The notes beneath the pieces were generated by a model. It searched no databases, was not told where the DNA came from, and worked only from the letters and a program-made list of their open reading frames with translations. The position numbers were made by a program, and so were the translations under genes. Shown here one piece after another: positions 5,658 through 36,504 of a stretch of DNA of 64,000 nt. Source of the stretch: an uncultured Anaeroplasma sp. (GTDB taxonomy: Bacteria; Bacillota_I; Bacilli_A; Acholeplasmatales; Anaeroplasmataceae); contig CAMEJG010000006.1 in NCBI GenBank assembly GCA_945919465.1, positions 1 through 64,000 on the forward strand. The letters are read 5' to 3'. Within the stretch, counting starts at the first letter, position 1. Every line of letters starts with the position of its first letter.

Positions 5658-6538
5658 TACTTGCTTAATATTTCATATCCATCCTCAGTAACTACGATTG
5701 TATGCTCCCACTGACTAGAAAGCTTACCATCTTTAGTATAGCTACTCCAGGTATCGCCCTCTTTAAATCTTATTCCCTTTACCCCTTCATTAATCATCGG
5801 TTCAATAGTAATAACCATTCCTGGAACGAGCAAATATGACGGATTATAATTTGCATAATGTAAAACAAAAGGATCTTCATGCATTTTATAGCCAACCCCA
5901 TGACCACAATATTCTTCTACTACTGAATAACCCATAGAGTGAGCATATTTCTCGATTGCAATTCCAATATCCCTTACTTGAGATTCAAAAGGTTTTATTT
6001 GAGCCATACCTATATTAAGACATTCTTTAGTTGCTAAAACTAATCTTTCAGCTTCTAGACTAACTTGTCCAATCATAAACATACGAGATGCATCAGCGTA
6101 ATAGCCTTTATATTCTGTAGTAACATCTACATTAATAATATCTCCATTTTTTAAGATATCTTTTTCATTTGGAATACCATGACAAATAACATCATTAATT
6201 GAGGTACAAATACTTTTTGGGTAACCTTGATAATTAAAATCAGCACTATGTGCATGATGCTCTTTTAAATATTCAACACACCAATTATCGATTTCTAGGG
6301 TTGAAATTCCTTCTTTTATTCTTTCCTCAACCATATCAAGAAGACCATTATTAATAGCTGCTGCTTTTTTTATTCCTTCAATATCCTTTTCAGTTTTAAT
6401 CATTCTTCTTGTTGGTACTAATGCATTGAGCTTTTTGGCTTGAGATTCTACCTTTAAATCAAATGTCATGTGGCAATTTTTATAGCTCTTGCCACTATTA
6501 CACCAACACTTTTTATATATATCTATTTTTTTTACCAT
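5657..6538 (-). CDS. map: Type I methionine aminopeptidase with N-terminal SEC-C-like zinc motif
   Basis: 293-residue peptidase that removes the initiator Met from nascent proteins. Residues 11-23 (CWCNSGKSYKNCH) form a SEC-C-type zinc motif, an extension known from some clostridial and Mollicutes MAPs. The pita-bread catalytic domain follows. Metal ligands are visible as the Asp of INVDVT, the Asp of YYADASR, the His of GHGVGYKMHEDP, the Glu of ITIEPM and the Glu of QWEHT. The gene lies 58 bases after efp with a terminator between, so it probably has its own transcript. Confidence 0.93.
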   Translation of the reverse strand: MVKKIDIYKKCWCNSGKSYKNCHMTFDLKVESQAKKLNALVPTRRMIKTEKDIEGIKKAAAINNGLLDMVEERIKEGISTLEIDNWCVEYLKEHHAHSADFNYQGYPKSICTSINDVICHGIPNEKDILKNGDIINVDVTTEYKGYYADASRMFMIGQVSLEAERLVLATKECLNIGMAQIKPFESQVRDIGIAIEKYAHSMGYSVVEEYCGHGVGYKMHEDPFVLHYANYNPSYLLVPGMVITIEPMINEGVKGIRFKEGDTWSSYTKDGKLSSQWEHTIVVTEDGYEILSK

Positions 6539-26532: not shown

Positions 26533-26574
26533 AATATATAAAATTTATATTTTAAATATACTTTGGAGGTATAT

Positions 26575-26784
26575 ATGGATATTAAAGAATTAGAATATTA
26601 TAAAACCATTGTTGAATGTGGTTCAATACTAAAAGCTTCAAAAGAATTAAATATAGCCCAACCACCACTATCAAGAATGATTAAAAATTTAGAATTTGAG
26701 TTAAATACAAAGTTATTTGAAAGAGGGAAAACCTTAACACTTCTTCCAGCTGGAAAAATATTATATGAAAAAGCAATAGGGTAG
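26575..26784 (+). pseudogene. LysR-type regulator, 5' fragment (DNA-binding domain)
   Basis: ATG at 26575 with GGAGG 7 bases upstream; encodes a complete LysR winged helix: MDIKELEYYKTIVECGS, ASKELNIAQPPLSRMIKNLE and TLLPAGKILYEKAI. The frame then runs straight into the 3' end of a group II intron and stops at TAG (26782). About 68 residues remain of an expected 290. The missing downstream part reappears at about 36184-36504 on the same strand and in the right order, so this was one gene. Confidence 0.85.
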
Positions 26785-27860
26785 AGGAAAGAAAATAATT
26801 CTTTGCCCCTCCCATTGCACCGTACGTACGGGTCTCGTATACGGCGCTACATTTATATTGAACACAAACTACCTAAGGTAGTAAGCCAAAGGGTTGACCA
26901 GTCCCGGTCTTCCGTTTTTCTTATTGGCTAGTGCTAAAACTTTAGGACTTAATATGTAGTTCACTACATCCATTCCGCATCTTCGATACCAACCTAATCT
27001 AGAATTTGCTAGCTTGAATATATCTTCATCTTCACAATTGCATTTAAATGCTTTGTTAAGTCTTTGGAGATTAATGTATATTCTCATAGGTTTCTTCCAT
27101 TGTTTGATAATTATTACTCTTACCTTATGTCTTAACCATTGTCCAAAGGTGTCGATAAAACCTTTCATACTTCCTATACGGAAGTAGTTTATCTAACCTC
27201 GAATAATTTGATTTAGTTTAGTAAATGTAATTGCTAGTGGAGTTGATATCGCGTAGTTACGCTTAAGTACCTTTTTAACCTTATCATAAAGTTTAATCTT
27301 TCGGTCCGTACAGGGTTTGCATTTCCATACATCACGGTTTTTCCAAAATGTAAAGCCTAAGAAATTACTATTGGTTGATCTTACAATTAAAGTTTTTGTT
27401 GCAAAAACCTTAAGAAATAACTTCCTTTCTAGCCAAATTGTTCTAGACCATCTCATCTTACGAACTTTCCAAACATTGCTTATAGTGATTCGCACTATAT
27501 AAACATTAGGTTCTTTTGTGAGTGCTTCTCACATACTACGACATCAGCTGACTTTCTAACTATTTGCTTTTTATTACACGTATTTTACGCGTTAGGGCCT
27601 CTTGGGGTAATTCACTAATCTTTCGTTTTAAAACCTCTTGATTTACTGTCTTGGTTTTAAATTTACCTTTTGGACTTTAGTTTGGAAAGAACCTTATCCA
27701 CCATTTAGCCTCATCAAGTTTCTATGCGTAGGCTTTCAAACTTCACTAGATGCTTCCTTCACCCATAACATTACTGTTAACGGCTTGGGGTTTACTACAC
27801 TTGTAGGTATTTACCCGTGACTTACTTTCACCAGTAAGATTAGTGCCATGCCCGGCACAC
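26778..27860 (-). mobile_element. Group II intron, internally deleted, antisense to lysR
   Basis: Reads on the minus strand from a typical 5' end GTGTGCCGGGCATGGC at 27860. A domain V-like hairpin lies at 26817-26851: it starts AGC, lower stem GCGCCGTA / TACGGTGC, then an upper stem. It is followed by a domain VI-like stem ending CTCTACCCTAT at about 26778. Length is about 1.08 kb against roughly 1.9-2.5 kb for complete introns, because most of the reverse transcriptase inside domain IV is gone. Bases 27496-27860 hold the structured RNA part (domains I-III) and no gene. Exact ends are uncertain by a few bases. Confidence 0.8.
26869..27495 (-). pseudogene. Group II intron maturase/reverse transcriptase remnant
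   Basis: Only the C-terminal third remains. The sequence NFLGFTFWKNRD is followed by the maturase domain X-type sequence and a tail NSRLGWYRRCGMDVVNY ending PLAYYLR. The catalytic reverse-transcriptase core (YADD region) is deleted. One in-frame TAG (27190-27192) splits the remnant. The residue there is normally Trp in the family motif IRGWINYFRIGS, here IRG-stop-INYFRIGS, so a single TGG-to-TAG change explains it. Cannot encode a working retroelement protein. Confidence 0.82.
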
Positions 27861-27865
27861 TTCAT

Positions 27866-27891
27866 AAAATCCAGGTATTTTTTACCTGGAA
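27866..27891 (-). terminator. Terminator of the island operon, at the intron 5' end
   Basis: 8-bp stem TCCAGGTA / TACCTGGA (27870-27877, 27883-27890, loop of 5) followed on the minus strand by TTTTAT. It lies 52 bases after the last ABC gene. The group II intron begins just after it, matching the known habit of some intron classes of inserting downstream of terminators. Confidence 0.72.
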
Positions 27892-27915
27892 TTTTTTCAC
27901 TTTTTACCCCTTATT

Positions 27916-27934
27916 AAAAAATGGGGAAACACAA
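27916..27934. repeat. 19-bp inverted repeat, left copy
   Basis: AAAAAATGGGGAAACACAA. It matches the reverse complement of 35224-35242 at 18 of 19 positions. It directly abuts the stop codon of the 767-residue ABC gene. Probably the end of an insertion sequence. Confidence 0.7.
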
Positions 27935-27941
27935 AAAACAA

Positions 27942-30245
27942 TTAACTTTTTATTCTTTTAAATAAGGAAGATACATTTGATCTAAGTTTTAATACTGTAG
28001 ATAGCATATAAATAACTCCATATGCTAAAACAAAAATAAGGAAGCATAAATAAAACCAAATACTAGAGTATGGATTAAGTATAGGTAAGCCTATATTAAA
28101 GGTTTTATTTAATTCAAGTAATCCTAATAAGATAAAGCTTGATAAAATATATGGAATACCAACAAAGATTAGGGCATTCATTATAGATGAAATAAATATC
28201 TTGAAGGATAAATAGAATCTTTTTTTACCTAGGGTTCTTTCAAAGGCTAATCGATTTGCCATTTTATTTACCATAATAAAGGACATTAGAATAACATATC
28301 CTGTAATTAAGAATAAAATGCTAAAGGCAGGAATGATGAAGCTTACAAGCCTTTTATGTGCCTCTCCATAAAAAGCATCGTATTGATAATCCTTTTCCAT
28401 ACATACATTCTTATATATATTCTCTGTGTGTAATTGGAATAAATAATTCTTTGTCAATTTTAAATTAAACATACGTTGAATTAAATTATATTCTAATCTA
28501 AATTCTGTAGAATCTAAAGACATAACATATTCATATTTATTCTCTATAGAATCATCTAATTGATAGAACCCAGAAATTAAATATTCCCCAGCCTTTGCAC
28601 CTAATTCCGTTTTACCATCATCTAAGGCTAAAATTTCTTTTTTATTCTTTGGTAATTCTCCTCTACTCAAGGATAAATCAAAGGAAGTAAAATTAGAAAC
28701 CATTCTTACATTTCTTAAGCTACCATCTATAGAATAATTTGTTAATCCAACACTATAATCATAAGTCTTATAATAGAATACCTCATAATTCAATGAATCC
28801 GTAATTCCAACAATTTTCTTATTCGTTTTTGTACCATTAATATTTAAGCTATAATTCAATAGATTCTTTAATGGAATATCTCCTCTAATGCTATTGGCTA
28901 ACGCTTTAGAGATGATAACATCATCACTATTATTTAATTGATTTACGCCATATAATACTTCTTTATTGTTATATTCTATAGGGACATAAATACCCTTTTC
29001 ACTTTTTGATTTAACATAAGAATTATGGAATAAATAAAAATCATAAATAGCTTCCTCAACAACATCCGTAACCTTATTCTCTAGAATTAATTCCTCTAAT
29101 GGAGTAGAATCTAAATATTTTCCCTTACCATCATTATGTATATTTCGATTCACTAAATAGGCAGTATCTGTATATCTTACCTTAGATTCATCTACCTTAG
29201 TAGAAGAAACTAAAAAGAAGGAAAAGAAAAATAGCATAATACCGATAAGAACTAAGAATATGCGATGGACCAAATTTAATTTTGTTTTATTAAAGAAATA
29301 CAACAGAATTTCTTTAAATCTATCATTCTTCTTTTCTACATCATTATATTCTATGAATAAATCTATATTTTCTTCTGGAATTAGTCCTGTTCTTTCCTTG
29401 GCTATAATATATGGACTGTCTTCTATATTTTTAATTCTTTGATCTGCCTTGTAATAGATTTGTCCATGAATGGAATAAAAGGAAATATTTAAAGAATCTA
29501 AATCATAAGTGTCTATTTTAATATCCTCTTTTGAAATCTCATTATGCTTTAAATCCTCTTCATATATTCTATTTGAGGAATCATATTCCTTATTTGATGG
29601 AATATATTCCTTTAAAATTCTACCATCCTGGATGGTATATATTTTATCAGAATAATCCTCTGCAAGTATTTTATTATGCGTAACGAATAGAACTAATGCA
29701 TCCTTTGCTGCATATTTCAAAGCACGCATAATAACTCTTGCATTATTTTGATCTAGATTTCCTGTAGGTTCATCAGCAAATATGATTTTATTCTTTCTCA
29801 AAAGTGCTCTTGCAATACCTACTCTTTGGCGTTCTCCACCACTTAAATTCTTAACGAAATGTCTTTTGTATTTTTTTAATTTGACTATGTCTAATACCTG
29901 ATGAATTCTAAAATCTACCTCTTCCTTAGATGTAATTCCATTTAGCAATAGGTATTCATATAAATTATCATAAACCGTATTATTCTCTAGTAAAAAACAA
30001 TCCTGAAAAATATAGGAAATATTTTTTTCTCTATAAGAATCCATATCCTTGATTTTTATGCCATCATATAAAATTTCTCCAGAGGATGGACAATCTAATC
30101 CGCCTAATATATTTAATAAGGTGGATTTACCACTACCTGACTCACCTAAAATAGAGATTAAACCTGTATTTGGTAAATCTAAATCAATATCCTTTAATAT
30201 TTGTACTCTATTAAAGCTTTTTGTAACGTGAATAAGATTAATCAT
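27942..30245 (-). CDS. MacB-like ABC ATPase-permease fusion (island, second)
   Basis: 767 residues. N-terminal ATPase (about 1-220) with Walker A GESGSGKST, signature LSGGERQR and Walker B IIFADEPTGNLD. A linker follows, then an FtsX-type permease: one membrane helix at about 325-345, a large extracytoplasmic domain (about 345-640) and three helices near the C-terminus. This is the topology of MacB and of bacteriocin/antimicrobial-peptide resistance or export systems (including the lactococcin 972 group). It overlaps the upstream paralogue by 8 bases and probably works with it. The transported molecule is unknown; export of, or protection from, a peptide is inference. Confidence 0.8.
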   Translation of the reverse strand: MINLIHVTKSFNRVQILKDIDLDLPNTGLISILGESGSGKSTLLNILGGLDCPSSGEILYDGIKIKDMDSYREKNISYIFQDCFLLENNTVYDNLYEYLLLNGITSKEEVDFRIHQVLDIVKLKKYKRHFVKNLSGGERQRVGIARALLRKNKIIFADEPTGNLDQNNARVIMRALKYAAKDALVLFVTHNKILAEDYSDKIYTIQDGRILKEYIPSNKEYDSSNRIYEEDLKHNEISKEDIKIDTYDLDSLNISFYSIHGQIYYKADQRIKNIEDSPYIIAKERTGLIPEENIDLFIEYNDVEKKNDRFKEILLYFFNKTKLNLVHRIFLVLIGIMLFFFSFFLVSSTKVDESKVRYTDTAYLVNRNIHNDGKGKYLDSTPLEELILENKVTDVVEEAIYDFYLFHNSYVKSKSEKGIYVPIEYNNKEVLYGVNQLNNSDDVIISKALANSIRGDIPLKNLLNYSLNINGTKTNKKIVGITDSLNYEVFYYKTYDYSVGLTNYSIDGSLRNVRMVSNFTSFDLSLSRGELPKNKKEILALDDGKTELGAKAGEYLISGFYQLDDSIENKYEYVMSLDSTEFRLEYNLIQRMFNLKLTKNYLFQLHTENIYKNVCMEKDYQYDAFYGEAHKRLVSFIIPAFSILFLITGYVILMSFIMVNKMANRLAFERTLGKKRFYLSFKIFISSIMNALIFVGIPYILSSFILLGLLELNKTFNIGLPILNPYSSIWFYLCFLIFVLAYGVIYMLSTVLKLRSNVSSLFKRIKS

Positions 30246-32295
30246 TTCTCTTACCTCCCTTACCTAAAGCCTTCTTTTTCGATAAAACGAATTGATTTAA
30301 TATAAATATACATAATATTGAAAATATAAATACAAATATAGTAGATTTTAAGCAAATATTTAGAATAGAAAGATTCTTATAAAAGATATTTAAAAATAGA
30401 ATGGCAAGGAATAAGGATAGAATAAAGCTTACTAAAAAATACCCTATAAATTCTAAGGATAATAATTGTCTTGTTTTCTTCTTATTCAAGCCTAAAGAGC
30501 TTAAAACCAAGTATTCCTTATTTCTTAATTTAAATAAACTTAAAAAGATAAAGCCAAAGATTAAAAAAGAACTTAAAACAATACTATAAATTAATGCAAT
30601 TGAGGTATAAACAGAAGCATTATTCATAAAATCATCTTCTAAGGAATAATAAACCATATCTACAGCATAATATCCCATATTTTTTAAATGAGCAATTTCA
30701 TCTTCTGGATTTACATCATAAATAATGGCATCGAAGCACTTATCAAAAATATAATCCTTATTGATTTCAAGTATTGTCTCTTCACCATCATATTCAATTA
30801 GAAATTCGCTTCCGCTAGATAAATACTCTCTTCCATCTATCTCATAATATATATCAAAGCGTTGAATTTGCCCCTCAAAGCTCTTAGGGAATGTAATCTT
30901 ATTCTTAGTAGCATCTCTACAAACCAACCTAGAATAATCATAGATTTTAGTAGTGGATTCGCTACTATTCAGAATATTTGTAATTGTTCCATCATAATTA
31001 ATACAAACCCTAGAACTACTGCTTACCATTTTACTTATAGCCTGTAAATAGTCATTCCCAAACAAATAAGATTTTGTTGCACTACTTGCGACACCTACAA
31101 TAATGTAAGAATCTCCCATTCTAAAGCCTGTAATTTCTTTATTTAAGTAGACCTCACATTCATGCTCTGTAAGATTTCCCTCTAAATTGATACATACCTC
31201 GTTGGAAGCATTAGGATATCTACCTAAAAGTAAGCTTGGCATTTCATCATGATAATATAAATTGGCATTTTTATAATTTTTAATTTCATAAATACAGCTT
31301 CTTAATTCCTCACTTGGATTTCTATTATAAGAATTATATTTTTGAAATATAGTAGAATCTATAGGTTTACTGTCATTTGCTAAAACATAGACAGAGTTTT
31401 CCTTTGCATTTATGAAACGATTTGTATATTTGTATTGGTTTAAGGATATATTCTCAGCCGTAAATGTAATAAAAAGTAATAAAGAAAATATAAATCCTGT
31501 AAGTATCATAATAAAAGCCTTATTAAAGCTTCTAAATGAATTATAAAATGACATTTGAATCATTTTCTTAAATGAAATTACATCTGATTTTTTATATACC
31601 TGAAGTATTCCCTTCTTTTGAGATAATTCCTCATCTAAGGCAATTTCATTTTTTTTAAATAGAATTCTTCTTGTCGCAAAATCCTTTATTTCATCAAAGT
31701 TGTGCGTAACAATTACAACTAAATGGTCTTCTCCTAAGGATGCTAAAAGTGATACAATTCCCTTTGCCGTTTCACTATCCAAATTCGCAGTAGGTTCATC
31801 AGATGCAATAATTTTCGTATCTAAAGCAATCGCTCTTGCAATAGCACATCTTTGTTTTTCTCCACCAGACAGCTTATTGCATCTTTTATCCTTTAAACTT
31901 TCGATACCAACCCTCGCAATCGCATCTAGCGCTTTTGTCTTAGCATCCTTTATTGAATAATTCTTAATTAATAGTGGCATCATGACATTATCGATTACAC
32001 TCATAGATTCTATCAAATTATAATCCTGATAAATAAAGGATATATTTTGAAATCTATAATCATTCATTTCATCTAAATCATATTCACTTGTGTTTTTGAA
32101 ATCGATAATGATTTCTCCTTCCGTAGGAGAATCTAGCTTAGCTAAAAGCTTTAAAAATGTGGATTTACCACTACCTGATTCACCACATATTGCAACAACA
32201 CCAGTATCATTTAGCTCTAAATTTACATCTCTTAAGCCTAGTGTTGCTTTATCTTTATCTACATAAATTTTTGACACATTTTTAAATTGTATCAT
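30238..32295 (-). CDS. MacB-like ABC ATPase-permease fusion (island, first)
   Basis: 685 residues with the same plan as its neighbour: ATPase (about 1-220; GESGSGKST, LSGGEKQR, IIASDEPTANLD), a first membrane helix (about 262-283), an extracytoplasmic domain (about 285-555) and three C-terminal helices (about 560-670). The extracytoplasmic domain differs strongly from that of the second copy, suggesting a heterodimer. It lies 76 bases after the lipoprotein gene and belongs to the same minus-strand cassette. Confidence 0.8.
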   Translation of the reverse strand: MIQFKNVSKIYVDKDKATLGLRDVNLELNDTGVVAICGESGSGKSTFLKLLAKLDSPTEGEIIIDFKNTSEYDLDEMNDYRFQNISFIYQDYNLIESMSVIDNVMMPLLIKNYSIKDAKTKALDAIARVGIESLKDKRCNKLSGGEKQRCAIARAIALDTKIIASDEPTANLDSETAKGIVSLLASLGEDHLVVIVTHNFDEIKDFATRRILFKKNEIALDEELSQKKGILQVYKKSDVISFKKMIQMSFYNSFRSFNKAFIMILTGFIFSLLLFITFTAENISLNQYKYTNRFINAKENSVYVLANDSKPIDSTIFQKYNSYNRNPSEELRSCIYEIKNYKNANLYYHDEMPSLLLGRYPNASNEVCINLEGNLTEHECEVYLNKEITGFRMGDSYIIVGVASSATKSYLFGNDYLQAISKMVSSSSRVCINYDGTITNILNSSESTTKIYDYSRLVCRDATKNKITFPKSFEGQIQRFDIYYEIDGREYLSSGSEFLIEYDGEETILEINKDYIFDKCFDAIIYDVNPEDEIAHLKNMGYYAVDMVYYSLEDDFMNNASVYTSIALIYSIVLSSFLIFGFIFLSLFKLRNKEYLVLSSLGLNKKKTRQLLSLEFIGYFLVSFILSLFLAILFLNIFYKNLSILNICLKSTIFVFIFSILCIFILNQFVLSKKKALGKGGKRND

Positions 32296-32371
32296 TCTAT
32301 CACTCCCAATAAATAACGCTTCTATTTGATTATATCATTAGAAGCGCTAAATACTATATTATTTTATTTAT

Positions 32372-32797
32372 TTAACATTTCTTTGCATACTTTTCACATA
32401 AAGAAATGATTTCATCTAGAGTATATTCTTTATATTCACCGTACGCTTTTGCGTTTAAATACTCATTATAAGTTTCTTCATGAGAAGAAATATAAGGCTC
32501 TTTTAAAGTGAATTCCGTAATTTCTACATCATTTTCAAAAACAATTAAATAATGAACTATATCATTGCCTGAATAGTATTTTAGCTCATAGTACCAATAA
32601 TTATCCTTGCTGTAGCAATCTAATCCATCTAGTTCCATTTCTCCAGCTAAAATTGCTTTACCCCATCTTGATCCAATTAGTGATTCTTGACTATTATAAT
32701 CCTCATTTTTACATGCCGACAAACCAAATAGAAAAACAATGGCAATCAACAACGCTTTAAATAATTTATTTAGATTTAATCCAATGACCTTTCGCAT
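32372..32797 (-). CDS. Small lipoprotein 1 of the island
   Basis: 141-residue predicted lipoprotein: signal with lipobox LSAC (about residue 29), then a short acidic domain with the aromatic strand YWYYELKYYSG and the C-terminal sequence AKAYGEYKEYTLDEI. It resembles the other two small lipoproteins of the cassette in layout and in the AK.(Y/F)GEYK.YT motif. Function not recognised; anchored outside the membrane beside the two ABC permeases. The ribosome site GAGG lies inside the end of the preceding small frame. Confidence 0.7.
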   Translation of the reverse strand: MRKVIGLNLNKLFKALLIAIVFLFGLSACKNEDYNSQESLIGSRWGKAILAGEMELDGLDCYSKDNYWYYELKYYSGNDIVHYLIVFENDVEITEFTLKEPYISSHEETYNEYLNAKAYGEYKEYTLDEIISLCEKYAKKC

Positions 32798-32800
32798 ACT

Positions 32801-33076
32801 TTAAACCTCTAAAATAGTTTTCATTTTTTTCCAACTAGAAAGACTATACCCAACAAATGGGCAAAATTGTGTTACAGTTGGGCCGGAAACATATCTACTT
32901 TCAACTATCAAATTCTTCTTTGAAGACATTTTGAAACCTATGCGTCGATTTGCTGCAAAAACAAATTCAAATTCTATGCCACATTCAGTAGTAATTTCAT
33001 TTAAGTAATTATGTTCCGACATTTCAATTGCTGTTGTTAGTAAGGCAGGTATCACACTCTTCAGGATAATTATCAC
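32801..33076 (-). pseudogene. Possible gene remnant between the lipoproteins
   Basis: An open frame of 91 codons with no signal peptide, overlapping the end of lipoprotein 2 in another frame. The segment from about residue 25 (NEITTECGIEFEFVFAANRR) to the end looks more protein-like than random. It may be the tail of a decayed secreted gene whose start was lost. No family recognised, and it may not be expressed. Confidence 0.3.
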
Positions 33077-33398
33077 TTAAATCATAAGGTAATAAATAGA
33101 TGTGTGCTTTTTCTTTATAGAAATCTCTACCGCCTAGATTTCTATCAAAAACCCAAACTGAAATACGTTCAAATGCCTCACCAGAGGAACTTTCGAAATA
33201 GGAATAATGGTAGATATAATATTCATCATATTGATAAAGTGATAGTTCCTTATTAATGCAGTCTTCTAAAAAGAAAGCTAACCTTTTAGAAATAAAATCA
33301 CTCTCAACTTCATCATATGCATTTTTATTATTGCACGATGTCGTTAAAAAAACAAATAGTAAATATGCTAGCAGCAATTTTTTTAATTCTAATCTCAA
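33024..33398 (-). CDS. Small lipoprotein 2 of the island
   Basis: 124 residues: a signal with a weak lipobox TTSC (about residue 22), then YYIYHYSYFES, matching the aromatic strand of its two paralogues. It lacks their C-terminal AK.(Y/F)GEYK motif. The frame changes character after PYDLSDNYPEE, so it may be truncated or frameshifted. Function unknown. About 196 bases upstream (33399-33594) contain no intact gene, only short fragments resembling coding sequence. Confidence 0.55.
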   Translation of the reverse strand: MRLELKKLLLAYLLFVFLTTSCNNKNAYDEVESDFISKRLAFFLEDCINKELSLYQYDEYYIYHYSYFESSSGEAFERISVWVFDRNLGGRDFYKEKAHIYLLPYDLSDNYPEECDTCLTNNSN

Positions 33399-33594
33399 AT
33401 TTCATACAGTATTCCTCACCATAAATCTCTCATCTTTTGCATATGAAGATACTTTTTCTCATAACATAGTTAAACTATACATCTTTCTTAATTAACATTT
33501 AATTCCATCCATAAGAAAATGTTCTTCTGAACCATCTCCTGTATAGGAAGTATGCTAGCAATATTAATAGTCACATTCTCTTCTTTTTGATTAA

Positions 33595-34056
33595 TTAACT
33601 AAAAAGTTTAGTCCATTCTTCTTCTGTGTAAGATTTATATTCTCCAAATTGTTTTGCCTTCATATAACAATTATAGTATGCTTCAAAACCTTCCTTTAAG
33701 GCCTCAAATGTACTTAAATTAATTGTAAGTCGAAGACTTGAGTTATCATATATATAAATGTCATTAAAAGTATCCTGTTCACTTGTAATATTATAATTAA
33801 TGATATAAAAACTCCATGTTCTTTCTAAAGCGCTAGAATCATCTTCTATAACATCAATATAAATATATCTTTCTAAAGAATTAATTGTATAATTCTCGTT
33901 CTTCCAGCGAGAATTAAAATTGTCACTTAATACATCATCCACATTTATTTTCTCATTATTTTTACTACAAGACGAAAGAGAAAGAAATAATATAAATGAT
34001 ATGAGTAAAATAATGACTTTTCTTGATTTACATTGCTGCCCATTTACCTTTTGCAT
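33595..34056 (-). CDS. Small lipoprotein 3 of the island
   Basis: 153 residues: a basic N-terminus and hydrophobic signal with lipobox LSSC (about residue 30), then RTWSFYIINYNI and the tail MKAKQFGEYKSYTEEEW, which parallels lipoprotein 1. It starts within the end of the upstream secreted-protein gene (29-base overlap), with GGAG 8 bases before the ATG, so the two are probably translationally coupled. Function unknown. Confidence 0.68.
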   Translation of the reverse strand: MQKVNGQQCKSRKVIILLISFILFLSLSSCSKNNEKINVDDVLSDNFNSRWKNENYTINSLERYIYIDVIEDDSSALERTWSFYIINYNITSEQDTFNDIYIYDNSSLRLTINLSTFEALKEGFEAYYNCYMKAKQFGEYKSYTEEEWTKLFS

Positions 34057-35172
34057 TTTTTTCTCCTCTTAAATATGTGTCTAAACTATTATATGTTATC
34101 ACGTCATAATTATAACCAAATAATCCCACTGGAACATCAGTCGTATACCACTCTTTTAATCCTAAGCAATACTCGGCCGAATATTTAATTGTATCATAAC
34201 TAATTGCGGTTTCCTTTATTTTACATTCATTTTTTATTTTTGTAATAAGTGCTTGCTTTGTTAAATAGTTCATGCTTGTTGCCAAACTAGCGCATTCGAA
34301 AAACGCGGAGATTGCAATTGAAGTACCCGCTGTTGCCTTGGCTGTAATGATACCAACCACAAAGCCTATCAAATCAACGACTTCGGGTATATTACTATCC
34401 TTTATTTCAAGCAACGTTTTAGGGCTTATAGAATCCATACCATATTTTTCTTTATATTCGCCCAAATCTATTTCTTTATCCAAAAGCATCCAATAAAACA
34501 ATATGGTTTGTTCATATGTGAAATACTGAATATAGTTAGTATAAATCCTTAATCCACTATAATATGGGTCATTATTTTCACATATCCATCTATTATAGCT
34601 TGTATACCTAGGTCTATATATTAAATCTTCATTTGGCCCTATATTTATAGTATATGAACCAGTAGCGGTTCCATGCATTCTTACTGCGACATAATAATAT
34701 CCTTTAGCAAGATATTCAATAGAACATACATTATAATAATTATTGTCACATTTACTTCCATCATCTTCTGTTCTATCAAAGCCAATAAAGCCATCAACCC
34801 ACCAAAGAATTTGATTTTCTCTATATAATCTAATTTTTGTGTCCTTGCTTCCTGTCGTATATGCTGTATAATAACCATCACATGGAACATAATAATGATA
34901 AATATGTACTTGATATGATTTAGTTATACTATTTGTATAAGATACAAGATTTTCAACATTTACTGGATTAGTTATCTTGTCTCTACAAGCATATAATTTT
35001 TCATTCGATAAATCAATTTCATAAGCATTAGCTATTCCATCACAAGAATAGTAATAATCATTTGATGCAGCATGTACTCCTACTTGGGATACAATACCTA
35101 AAAAAGCATAGCAAAAGCTACAATAAAAATTCTATTTAATGTTTTTATTTTTTTCTCTCCCACATTTAACAT
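34028..35172 (-). pseudogene. Secreted PPC-like-domain protein, frameshifted in its signal peptide
   Basis: The gene begins at ATG 35172 or, more likely by its ribosome site (GGGAGAG), at an ATA codon 24 bases later. It encodes a signal peptide (IKTLNRIFIVAFAMLF). A run of only six T (plus-strand A6, 35100-35105) shifts the frame and creates a TAG. With seven T the reading would continue as LGIVSQVGVHAASND into a roughly 380-residue mature protein. That body has a pre-peptidase C-terminal (PPC)-like beta-sandwich (GYYTAYTTGSKDTKIRLY to GSYTINIG), then a helical region with a long hydrophobic stretch (VVDLIGFVVGIITAKATAG). The intact part after the shift has no ATG before 34678. It heads the cassette and may be its exported product or sensor; this is inference. 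Confidence 0.65.
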
Positions 35173-35223
35173 CGAGTAAAATTATACACTCCCAGAAATT
35201 TCAAGTCAATAACAATATTATAC

Positions 35224-35242
35224 TTGTGTTTCCCCATTTTTA
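35224..35242. repeat. 19-bp inverted repeat, right copy
   Basis: TTGTGTTTCCCCATTTTTA, the inverted partner of 27916-27934. It lies 22 bases beyond the transposase stop, the normal place for an insertion-sequence end. Confidence 0.7.
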
Positions 35243-35264
35243 TTTCAAACATAAATTAATGATT

Positions 35265-36183
35265 TTATGGTGGATTAAACCTAACTCCCATCACAGTCCA
35301 TAAATCTCGTCTTCGTTTATTTCTTTTTGGATATAATTCAACTATTAATTCATTACTAAAAAATGAAATAATTTCTTTTATTCCATCACTAATTCTATAT
35401 AACCAGAATAATACTTTTTCTCTTAATTGGTTTTTTATTTTCCATATTGTCTTTCCTACTGCTTTCATATTTATAACATTGCTGAAAAACATTGCATATG
35501 TAAGTAGTGTATTTAAAGACTGTATTCTTTTATATCTTCTTACTTTAATCTTTTCAAACGAAAATTGTTGTTTCTTATATTTGAAATTTTCTTCAATTTT
35601 CCATCTTAAAGTGTAATCTCTTACTACTTGTAAAGCTTGATCTTTACCTGAAACTTTTCTAGATGTTAATAACACCATGTAAGCCTCAATTAAATTTCTT
35701 TTATCTATAGCGAAACCTTTTACTACTACCATAGTTATTACTTTAGATGATAATGATTTTGTTTCTCTATTTTTTATTATTATTTGTTTATAAGATACTT
35801 TTAAATTTTGGTAATCCTTTGAAACATATTTATATTTTCCTTTTATATTTTTTGCAATTTTGCTGATAGTGTTTTTCTCTCCATTAATATATACATTTCT
35901 ATCTAAACTTTTTGCTCTTATTATAAAATCAGAACCCATTTCTAGCACTTTTCCCATTAAAATCGCGTTATCATAACCTCTATCCATTATAAATATTCCT
36001 TTACCATAGATATTATTTACATAATCCATATGCTGTAACCATAAGTCATTATCAGATTTATAATCATCATCCTTTGATGATCGTAATTCAGATACTAAGC
36101 TTATTGGTTGATTATTATTATCAATAGTTGCGATTTCATTAATTTGATAGCCTTGTTTTATAGTATGAGAATCAGAACCATCT
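35265..36183 (-). pseudogene. IS4-type transposase, N-terminally truncated
   Basis: C-terminal ~305 residues of a DDE transposase. In reading order: DGSDSHTIKQGYQINEIATI, QPISLVSELRSSKDDDYKS, the second catalytic Asp region FIMDRGYDNA, and the IS4 signature Y-x2-R-x3-E-x6-K in YTLRWKIEENFKYKK. The reading frame stays open upstream to 36266, but from about 36184 that DNA is LysR sequence on the other strand, so the true transposase part ends there. The segment carrying the first catalytic Asp is lost. An ATG occurs only at 36029. Inactive as it stands. Confidence 0.8.
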
Positions 36184-36504
36184 AATACTAATTTTTTAAT
36201 AATATATCGTAGATTTAAAAAATTATTAGAATTATTATTTAAAGAAAATAATATAAAAATGAATATTCAAGCATTAGTAGATGATGCTAAAACTGCAATA
36301 CTGCTCTCATCTATAAATTTAGGATATACAATAGTACCAGATACTTCATATTATTCCTTTAAATATCTAAATTTAAATAAATGTATTATTGATTGTAATG
36401 AATTAAATACCAAGATTGGTGTTATAGATAGAAAAGGAGAAAAATTAAAAAAAGAATATGAAATACTAATTTCATACCTTAATAAAATAAATTCTCAAGC
36501 TTAG
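36184..36504 (+). pseudogene. LysR-type regulator, 3' fragment (effector domain)
   Basis: Continues the LysR reading at NFLIIYRRFKKLLELLF, then MNIQALVDDAKTAILLSSIN and LGYTIVPDTSYYSF, the typical last third of a LysR effector-binding domain (compare the family pattern DDARTA...GLGIAIVP). The frame is open from 36169; LysR-like sequence starts near 36190, and an ATG occurs only at 36259. Together with 26575-26784 it makes about 170 of some 290 residues. It converges on the Thg1-like gene. Confidence 0.78.

What the first reader, a model, noticed from the sequence alone, without database searches (positions are those of the whole stretch)
27934..35224. Candidate undescribed export or self-protection cassette: secreted protein, three paralogous lipoproteins, two MacB-like ABC fusions
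Seven minus-strand genes or fragments run the same way between two inverted repeats. The two ATPase-permease fusions (767 and 685 residues) have different extracytoplasmic domains and overlap, suggesting a heterodimer. Three short lipoproteins and a secreted PPC-like protein precede them. The layout recalls bacteriocin export/immunity (lactococcin 972 group) and peptide-sensing modules, but the lipoprotein family and the large secreted protein do not match a described system known to me.
Basis: partly seen in the sequence, partly recalled or inferred. Interest (0 to 1): 0.66.

Follow-up and report, generated by a model that had tools for sequence, protein, structure and literature searches.

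The report
Mobile bacterial toxin-and-immunity cassette candidate
A transferable gene cassette in a wall-less gut bacterium (Anaeroplasma) looks like a secreted toxin with a swappable business end, its matching protective lipoproteins and a pair of membrane pumps: a family of bacterial weapon and antidote not described in the libraries and papers searched here.

Summary
The cassette is real. Its 18-nt inverted repeats are the tips of two directly repeated copies of an IS4-family element, so the region is a decayed composite transposon inside a broken lysR gene. A near-identical cassette (ABC genes 96%) lies between the same IS tips in another Anaeroplasma species, whose typA is only 78% identical: horizontal transfer. 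Between the two cassettes, identity collapses exactly in the secreted protein's C-terminal domain and the overlapping lipoprotein gene (synonymous divergence 0.07-0.12 rises to 0.9-1.5), and recovers in the ABC genes: the signature of toxin-tip plus immunity exchange. A scar of lipoprotein 3 remains in the other species, and an orphan toxin-tip/lipoprotein pair sits elsewhere in this genome. The operon (secreted PPC protein, membrane-anchored small protein, one or two MacB-type ABC fusions) recurs in three other genera of Acholeplasmatales. Best reading: a polymorphic toxin-immunity system with lipoprotein antidotes and MacB-type pumps, probably for self-protection. The toxin gene is frameshifted in this window; lipoproteins 1 and 3 and both ABC genes are intact. 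Toxicity is untested. The lactococcin 972 link is not supported (below cut-off). Only two of the three lipoproteins are detectable paralogues.

The parts
26563..26784 (+). 5' fragment of an interrupted lysR gene
   Evidence: ORF ends at the group II intron; 52% identical to an intact LysR of the genus
26776..27860 (-). group II intron remnant with a frameshifted maturase ORF, next to the IS-end terminator
   Evidence: Rfam RF02001 E 1e-15 and RF00029 E 2e-5
27861..27934 (.). left IS4-family copy: only its terminal ~74 bp, with bidirectional terminator 27870-27890 and tip 27917-27934
   Evidence: matches the end of the intact 1478-bp IS in G022 (L035 833-2310)
27942..30245 (-). MacB-type ABC ATPase-permease fusion, 767 aa
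   Evidence: PF00005 E 2e-32; 4 TM segments and large outer domain; dN/dS 0.19 against G019
30238..32295 (-). MacB-type ABC ATPase-permease fusion, 685 aa
   Evidence: PF00005 E 3e-30; FtsX 23.5 bits (below cut-off); closest PDB ATPases include LolD, MacB, BceA; dN/dS 0.24
32296..32350 (-). conserved hairpin just upstream of the 685-aa ABC gene
   Evidence: z -4.1 here, -4.2 in G019
32372..32797 (-). lipoprotein 3, 141 aa: candidate orphan immunity protein
   Evidence: intact ORF with lipobox; paralogue of lipoprotein 1; its last ~30 bp survive as a scar in G019
32801..33398 (-). lipoprotein 2, frame broken; candidate decayed immunity gene of another family
   Evidence: ORFs 33024-33398 and 32801-33076 in different frames; no detectable similarity to lipoproteins 1 and 3
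33595..34056 (-). lipoprotein 1, 153 aa: candidate cognate immunity protein, overlapping the secreted gene by 29 bp
   Evidence: intact; 37% identical to the G019 counterpart while the flanking DNA is 96-97% identical
34028..34600 (-). variable C-terminal (candidate toxin) domain with a hydrophobic segment
   Evidence: 47% aa identity and dS 1.5 against G019, against 96% and dS 0.07 in the N-terminal domain
34601..35071 (-). conserved PPC domain of the secreted protein (mature start ~35071)
   Evidence: 97.5% DNA identity to G019; PPC fold in the modelled homologue
35072..35170 (-). signal-peptide region of the secreted gene, frameshifted in this genome
   Evidence: intact in frame in G019, G050, G120 and G083 locus C
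35181..35209 (-). promoter TTGACT-17-TATAAT just inside the IS tip
   Evidence: best of the region, 11 of 12 matches; same sequence in G019
35224..36198 (-). right IS4-family copy, positions 1-976 of 1478, with tip 35224-35241 and truncated transposase ORF 35265-36029
   Evidence: PF01609 E 3e-11; 94% identical to the intact transposase in G022
36259..36504 (+). 3' fragment of the same lysR gene; the middle ~147 aa is missing
   Evidence: weak match (27.5% over 80 aa, E 0.009) to the C-terminal part of an intact LysR

Best explanation
It is a transposon-borne polymorphic toxin-immunity locus of wall-less bacteria. A Sec-secreted protein carries a constant PPC domain and an exchangeable, partly hydrophobic C-terminal domain that is the toxin. 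The overlapping downstream lipoprotein is its specific antidote on the cell surface, and further lipoproteins are antidotes kept from earlier or foreign toxins. The two MacB-type ABC fusions are membrane machines of the same self-protection module; they probably pull toxin, or toxin-lipoprotein complexes, off the membrane, as LanFEG works with LanI. Shown by sequence: operon, conservation in other genera, co-exchange of C-terminus and lipoprotein, purifying selection on the ABC genes, horizontal transfer between IS copies. Inferred: toxicity, membrane as target, binding of lipoprotein to toxin, direction of the pumps. In this genome the toxin gene is frameshifted, so the copy probably works as immunity only.
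For: Mosaic: window against G019 is 97% identical over the PPC part, ~50% over the C-terminus and lipoprotein, 96% over the ABC pair; dS 0.07, then 1.49 and 0.88, then 0.10-0.12, so replacement and not merely fast protein evolution. The left breakpoint is the domain boundary; the right one lies in the last 30 bp of lipoprotein 3, left as a scar in G019. An orphan C-terminus plus lipoprotein in contig C2 starts at the same boundary. The secreted gene carries different lesions in the window, G019 and C2, while lipoproteins 1 and 3 and the counterparts in G019 and C2 stay open. Same operon in G050, G083 (3 loci) and G120, with a lipoprotein or TM-anchored small protein beside the secreted gene (overlapping its 3' end in G050 and G120), although FtsX-type matches are few (6-21 per genome). 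Hydrophobic C-terminal segment in 5 of 7 homologues. typA 78% against cassette 96%. TilA is a proven precedent for a lipoprotein antidote with tandem variable copies (PMC10730906), LanI/LanFEG for lipoprotein plus ABC immunity (PMC5786555), Rhs for C-terminus/immunity exchange and orphan immunity genes (PMC10539506).
Against: No toxic activity or known toxin fold is shown: no Pfam, PADLOC or PDB sequence match, and the C-terminal half of the model has pLDDT below 50. Two homologues (G050, one G083 copy) have no C-terminal segment above the hydropathy cut-off. The relationship of Anaeroplasma lipoproteins to the Acholeplasma small proteins is weak (hhalign 2.9%; z 6.4 for one pair). The ABC genes are not one clade and have chromosomal homologues without toxin genes. 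G388 has the secreted protein and a small TM protein but no ABC gene nearby. The co-exchange rests on one pair of cassettes plus a decayed fragment, from metagenome bins.
Confidence: 0.62

Rival explanations
1. The secreted PPC protein and lipoproteins are surface antigens or adhesins diversified under host or phage pressure; the ABC pair exports or releases them. No toxin is involved.
For: PPC domains are common binding modules of secreted enzymes; frameshifts in homopolymer runs of signal-peptide regions (window secreted gene and lipoprotein 2, G083 locus A) would suit phase variation.
Against: The two exchanged parts are the C-terminus and the gene overlapping it, as in toxin/immunity pairs; a second, separate lipoprotein and an orphan pair accompany it; the secreted product has no anchor beyond its signal peptide, judging from hydropathy.
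Confidence: 0.17
2. A peptide or protein export/processing module: the ABC pair is the dedicated exporter or maturation device of the secreted protein, and the lipoproteins are accessory chaperones.
For: Tight clustering of the secreted gene with ABC fusions in all Acholeplasmatales loci found.
Against: The secreted proteins carry Sec-type signal peptides; [quoted passage not shown] G388 has no ABC gene nearby; the ABC lineages differ between loci; a chaperone would not need to be exchanged with the C-terminus.
Confidence: 0.12
3. A resistance and detoxification cargo against foreign antimicrobial peptides (BceAB-like), with the secreted gene a decayed passenger.
For: The toxin gene is broken in all three Anaeroplasma copies while both ABC genes are under purifying selection.
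Against: Intact, syntenic secreted genes exist in G050, G083 locus C and G120; no sensor kinase or regulator typical of Bce systems is in the cassette.
Confidence: 0.09

Closest known systems
Rhs / CDI-type polymorphic toxin-immunity loci
   Same: constant N-terminal part, exchangeable C-terminal domain, immunity gene directly downstream, discarded or orphan modules (PMC10539506)
   Different: small Sec-secreted PPC carrier instead of a giant delivery protein; lipoprotein antidotes; ABC fusions in the operon
TslA/TilA of Staphylococcus aureus
   Same: extracellular toxin neutralised by a lipoprotein, with tandem, variable lipoprotein copies (PMC10730906)
   Different: TslA is a phospholipase secreted by the type VII system with helical partners; here a Sec signal region, no lipase or DUF576 match, and ABC genes
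LanI + LanFEG (nisin-type immunity)
   Same: lipoprotein plus ABC transporter as joint self-protection (PMC5786555)
   Different: LanFEG has six-TM permeases and protects from a small modified peptide; here MacB-type fusions and a ~35-kDa protein
MacB-type (type VII) ABC proteins: MacB, LolCDE, BceAB, YknXYZ
   Same: ATPase, one TM, large outer domain, three TM (PMC5985334)
   Different: no MacA adaptor in the cassette; operon partners are a secreted PPC protein and lipoproteins
Lactococcin 972 cluster (TIGR03608)
   Same: Sec-secreted bacteriocin with an ABC gene (own knowledge)
   Different: ABC scores far below the curated cut-off and no lactococcin-type precursor or multi-TM immunity protein was found

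Membership tests
Polymorphic toxin-immunity system | conserved N-terminal part with divergent C-terminal domain | tested here: met
   97% to ~50% DNA identity step at the domain boundary; dS 0.07 to 1.49
Polymorphic toxin-immunity system | immunity-type gene directly downstream and exchanged with the C-terminus | tested here: met
   overlapping lipoprotein gene, dS 0.88; right breakpoint at the end of lipoprotein 3
Polymorphic toxin-immunity system | orphan C-terminus/immunity modules | tested here: met
   own contig C2 fragment starts at the same boundary; one case, decayed
Polymorphic toxin-immunity system | C-terminus is toxic and specifically neutralised | not testable with these tools
   needs expression assays
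MacB-type (type VII) ABC fusion | ATPase motifs and 1+3 TM segments around a large outer domain | tested here: met
   motifs and hydropathy of both proteins
MacB-type (type VII) ABC fusion | FtsX permease domain (PF02687) | tested here: inconclusive
   685 aa: 23.5 bits by hmmscan, 29.3 in the genome search, cut-off 25.5; 767 aa: none
Lactococcin 972 export/immunity (TIGR03608) | score above curated cut-off 254.85 | tested here: not met
   175.7 and 166.7 bits
LanFEG/LanI lantibiotic immunity | separate six-TM permeases and ATPase; lantibiotic biosynthesis genes | tested here: not met
   fused ATPase-permeases with four TM segments; no such genes in the cassette
Type VII secreted toxin (LXG/TslA type) | LXG or helical secretion domain, no Sec signal | tested here: not met
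   Sec-type signal region in homologues; no matching Pfam family
Composite transposon | two copies of one IS flanking the cargo | tested here: met
   both tips and partial bodies match the intact IS of G022, in direct orientation; same junctions in G019
Composite transposon | complete IS copies and target-site duplication | tested here: not met
   both copies truncated, outer ends lost; present-day mobility not shown

The most novel reading that the evidence does not exclude
A so far undescribed family of secreted antibacterial protein toxins of wall-less bacteria (Acholeplasmatales): a PPC carrier with exchangeable membrane-active tips, surface lipoprotein antidotes, and MacB-type pumps that strip toxin from the membrane, spread as IS-bounded cassettes with orphan antidote arrays.
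Probability: 0.38. Interest if true: 0.78.

Novelty: new variant of a known kind. Interest (0 to 1): 0.6.

Why it matters
The searches found no described antagonism system of Acholeplasmatales with this layout, and wall-less bacteria are a natural place for membrane-directed toxins. If right, it joins polymorphic toxin exchange with a LanI/LanFEG-like lipoprotein-plus-ABC protection, gives a function to a class of MacB-type fusions, and yields toxin/lipoprotein pairs (G050, G083 locus C, G120) that can be tested directly.

Tried and rejected
Lactococcin 972 membership (below cut-off). Defence-system models: only generic ATPase hits. Plasmid and phage records: no match to the C-terminal domain. 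AlphaFold of the window protein with 3 sequences: pLDDT 30, unusable; with 7 sequences the N-terminal half only is usable. Inverted repeats as ends of a self-contained element: rejected, the tips face the cassette and belong to IS copies outside it. One clade of cassette ABC proteins: rejected. Homology of lipoprotein 2 to the others: not found. hhalign link of lipoproteins to Acholeplasma small proteins: not significant. Wider profile searches mostly gave PPC domains of large unrelated proteins. Literature searches for such a system in Anaeroplasma or Acholeplasma found none.

Full report
What is there. Both fusions have complete ATPase motifs and the MacB layout, one TM segment, a ~280-residue outer domain and three TM segments. 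Two corrections: the secreted gene is frameshifted in its signal-peptide region, and lipoprotein 2 is broken and not recognisably related to lipoproteins 1 and 3.

The boundaries. The 18-nt inverted repeats occur nowhere else in the genome. An intact 1478-bp IS4-family element in a congeneric genome (G022, L035 833-2310) has exactly these tips. In the window the tips face the cassette: the left copy is reduced to its last ~74 bp and abuts a group II intron remnant (Rfam RF02001, RF00029), the right copy keeps positions 1-976. The copies are in direct orientation, so this is the remains of a composite transposon. It lies in a lysR gene, of which the 5' part is clear (52% to an intact LysR) and the 3' part weakly supported (27.5%, E 0.009).

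A second copy by transfer. A 6.3-kb contig of another Anaeroplasma genome (G019; CAMEKD010000090.1) carries the cassette between the same tips with the same junctions. The ABC genes are 96% identical at the DNA level, whereas typA of the two genomes is 78% identical over the 586 bases available. The contig ends just outside the IS tips, and such a short contig can be mis-binned; this would not change the mosaic.

The mosaic. Along the two cassettes identity is 97% over the PPC part, drops near window 34600 and is about 50% through the C-terminal domain and the lipoprotein, then returns to 97% from 32407 on. dN/dS is 0.016/0.066 for the PPC part, 0.024/0.098 and 0.024/0.123 for the ABC genes, but dS is 1.49 for the C-terminus and 0.88 for the lipoprotein. 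A jump in synonymous divergence means replacement of the segment by recombination. G019 lacks lipoproteins 2 and 3 except the last ~30 bp of lipoprotein 3, the scar of the right breakpoint. In contig C2 of the window's own genome a decayed module of C-terminus, open lipoprotein gene and ABC remnant begins at the same domain boundary.

Conservation. The same operon occurs in another genus of the family (G050: secreted 352 aa, overlapping lipoprotein, ABC 777 aa), in a complete Acholeplasmataceae genome at three loci (G083; one with only a fragment of the secreted gene) and in G120 (ABC 789 aa, secreted 327 aa, overlapping lipoprotein). In the G083 loci the small proteins have a TM anchor instead of a lipobox; two loci have two paralogues, one on each side of the ABC pair (53% and 37% identical). 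In all seven loci the nearest ABC fusion lies within 1.8 kb, while each genome has only 6-21 FtsX matches. G388, of another order, has the secreted protein and a small TM protein without an ABC gene. ABC pairs of the same layout also stand alone on chromosomes of the family, and cassette ABC proteins are not one clade, so the pumps appear to have been recruited more than once or to have diverged far.

The proteins. Homologues of the secreted protein have a signal peptide, a PPC domain (structure match 5sv5, prob 1.00), a C-terminal half beginning Y-x-T-x-E-Q-x3-Y-Y, and a tail ending near R-G-x-F/W. Five of seven have a hydrophobic stretch of 19-35 residues in that half. No Pfam, PADLOC or PDB sequence match exists for it or for the lipoproteins (the lipoproteins were not searched against PDB). 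The C-terminal half of the model is unreliable.

Interpretation. Constant carrier, exchangeable tip, overlapping downstream gene exchanged with it, further lipoprotein genes and orphan modules together meet the features of a polymorphic toxin-immunity locus that sequence can test. Lipoproteins as antidotes have a proven case in TilA (PMC10730906); lipoprotein plus ABC transporter in LanI/LanFEG (PMC5786555); retention of orphan immunity genes in Rhs loci (PMC10539506). MacB does mechanical work outside the membrane and does not transport across it (PMC5985334), which suits extraction of a membrane-active toxin. Toxicity, target and pump direction are inferred.

State of this copy. The secreted gene carries different lesions in the window, in G019 and in C2, while lipoproteins 1 and 3 and the counterparts in G019 and C2 are open, as expected if immunity stays useful after the toxin is lost. 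Two secreted genes (window, G083 locus A) and lipoprotein 2 have frameshifts in homopolymer runs of the signal-peptide region; phase variation, decay and sequencing error cannot be told apart here. Intact copies exist in G050, G083 locus C and G120.

Noticed in passing
26776-27860: Group II intron remnant on the minus strand with a frameshifted maturase ORF, inserted just beyond the bidirectional terminator of the IS end.
   Followed up: partly
26563-26784 and 36259-36504: lysR gene split by the whole insertion; about 147 central residues are missing.
   Followed up: yes
32296-32350: About 10-bp inverted repeat forming a hairpin directly upstream of the ABC gene's ribosome-binding site, conserved in G019 (z about -4 in both); possible regulator site or attenuator.
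   Followed up: partly
35072-35170, 33340-33410, and L052 about 6265-6310: Frameshifts in homopolymer runs of signal-peptide regions of two secreted genes and one lipoprotein gene: phase variation, decay or sequencing error.
   Followed up: partly
L029 1-5261 (own contig C71): Second ABC pair of the own genome, about 65% identical to the cassette pair, next to IS66-like ORFs and truncated at its start; no toxin or lipoprotein gene on the short contig.
   Followed up: partly
L100 40-336 and 6576-6872: Two near-identical 98-aa HNH-like ORFs flank the G120 locus, as if that operon were also a mobile insertion beside metK.
   Followed up: no
L075 6225-11312 and L076 630-5579: In two G083 loci the ABC pair has a paralogous small membrane-anchored protein on each side.
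   Followed up: partly
L077 5818-7302: G388 (another order) has the secreted protein family with a 121-aa TM protein of no evident kinship downstream, perhaps a different kind of immunity protein.
   Followed up: no
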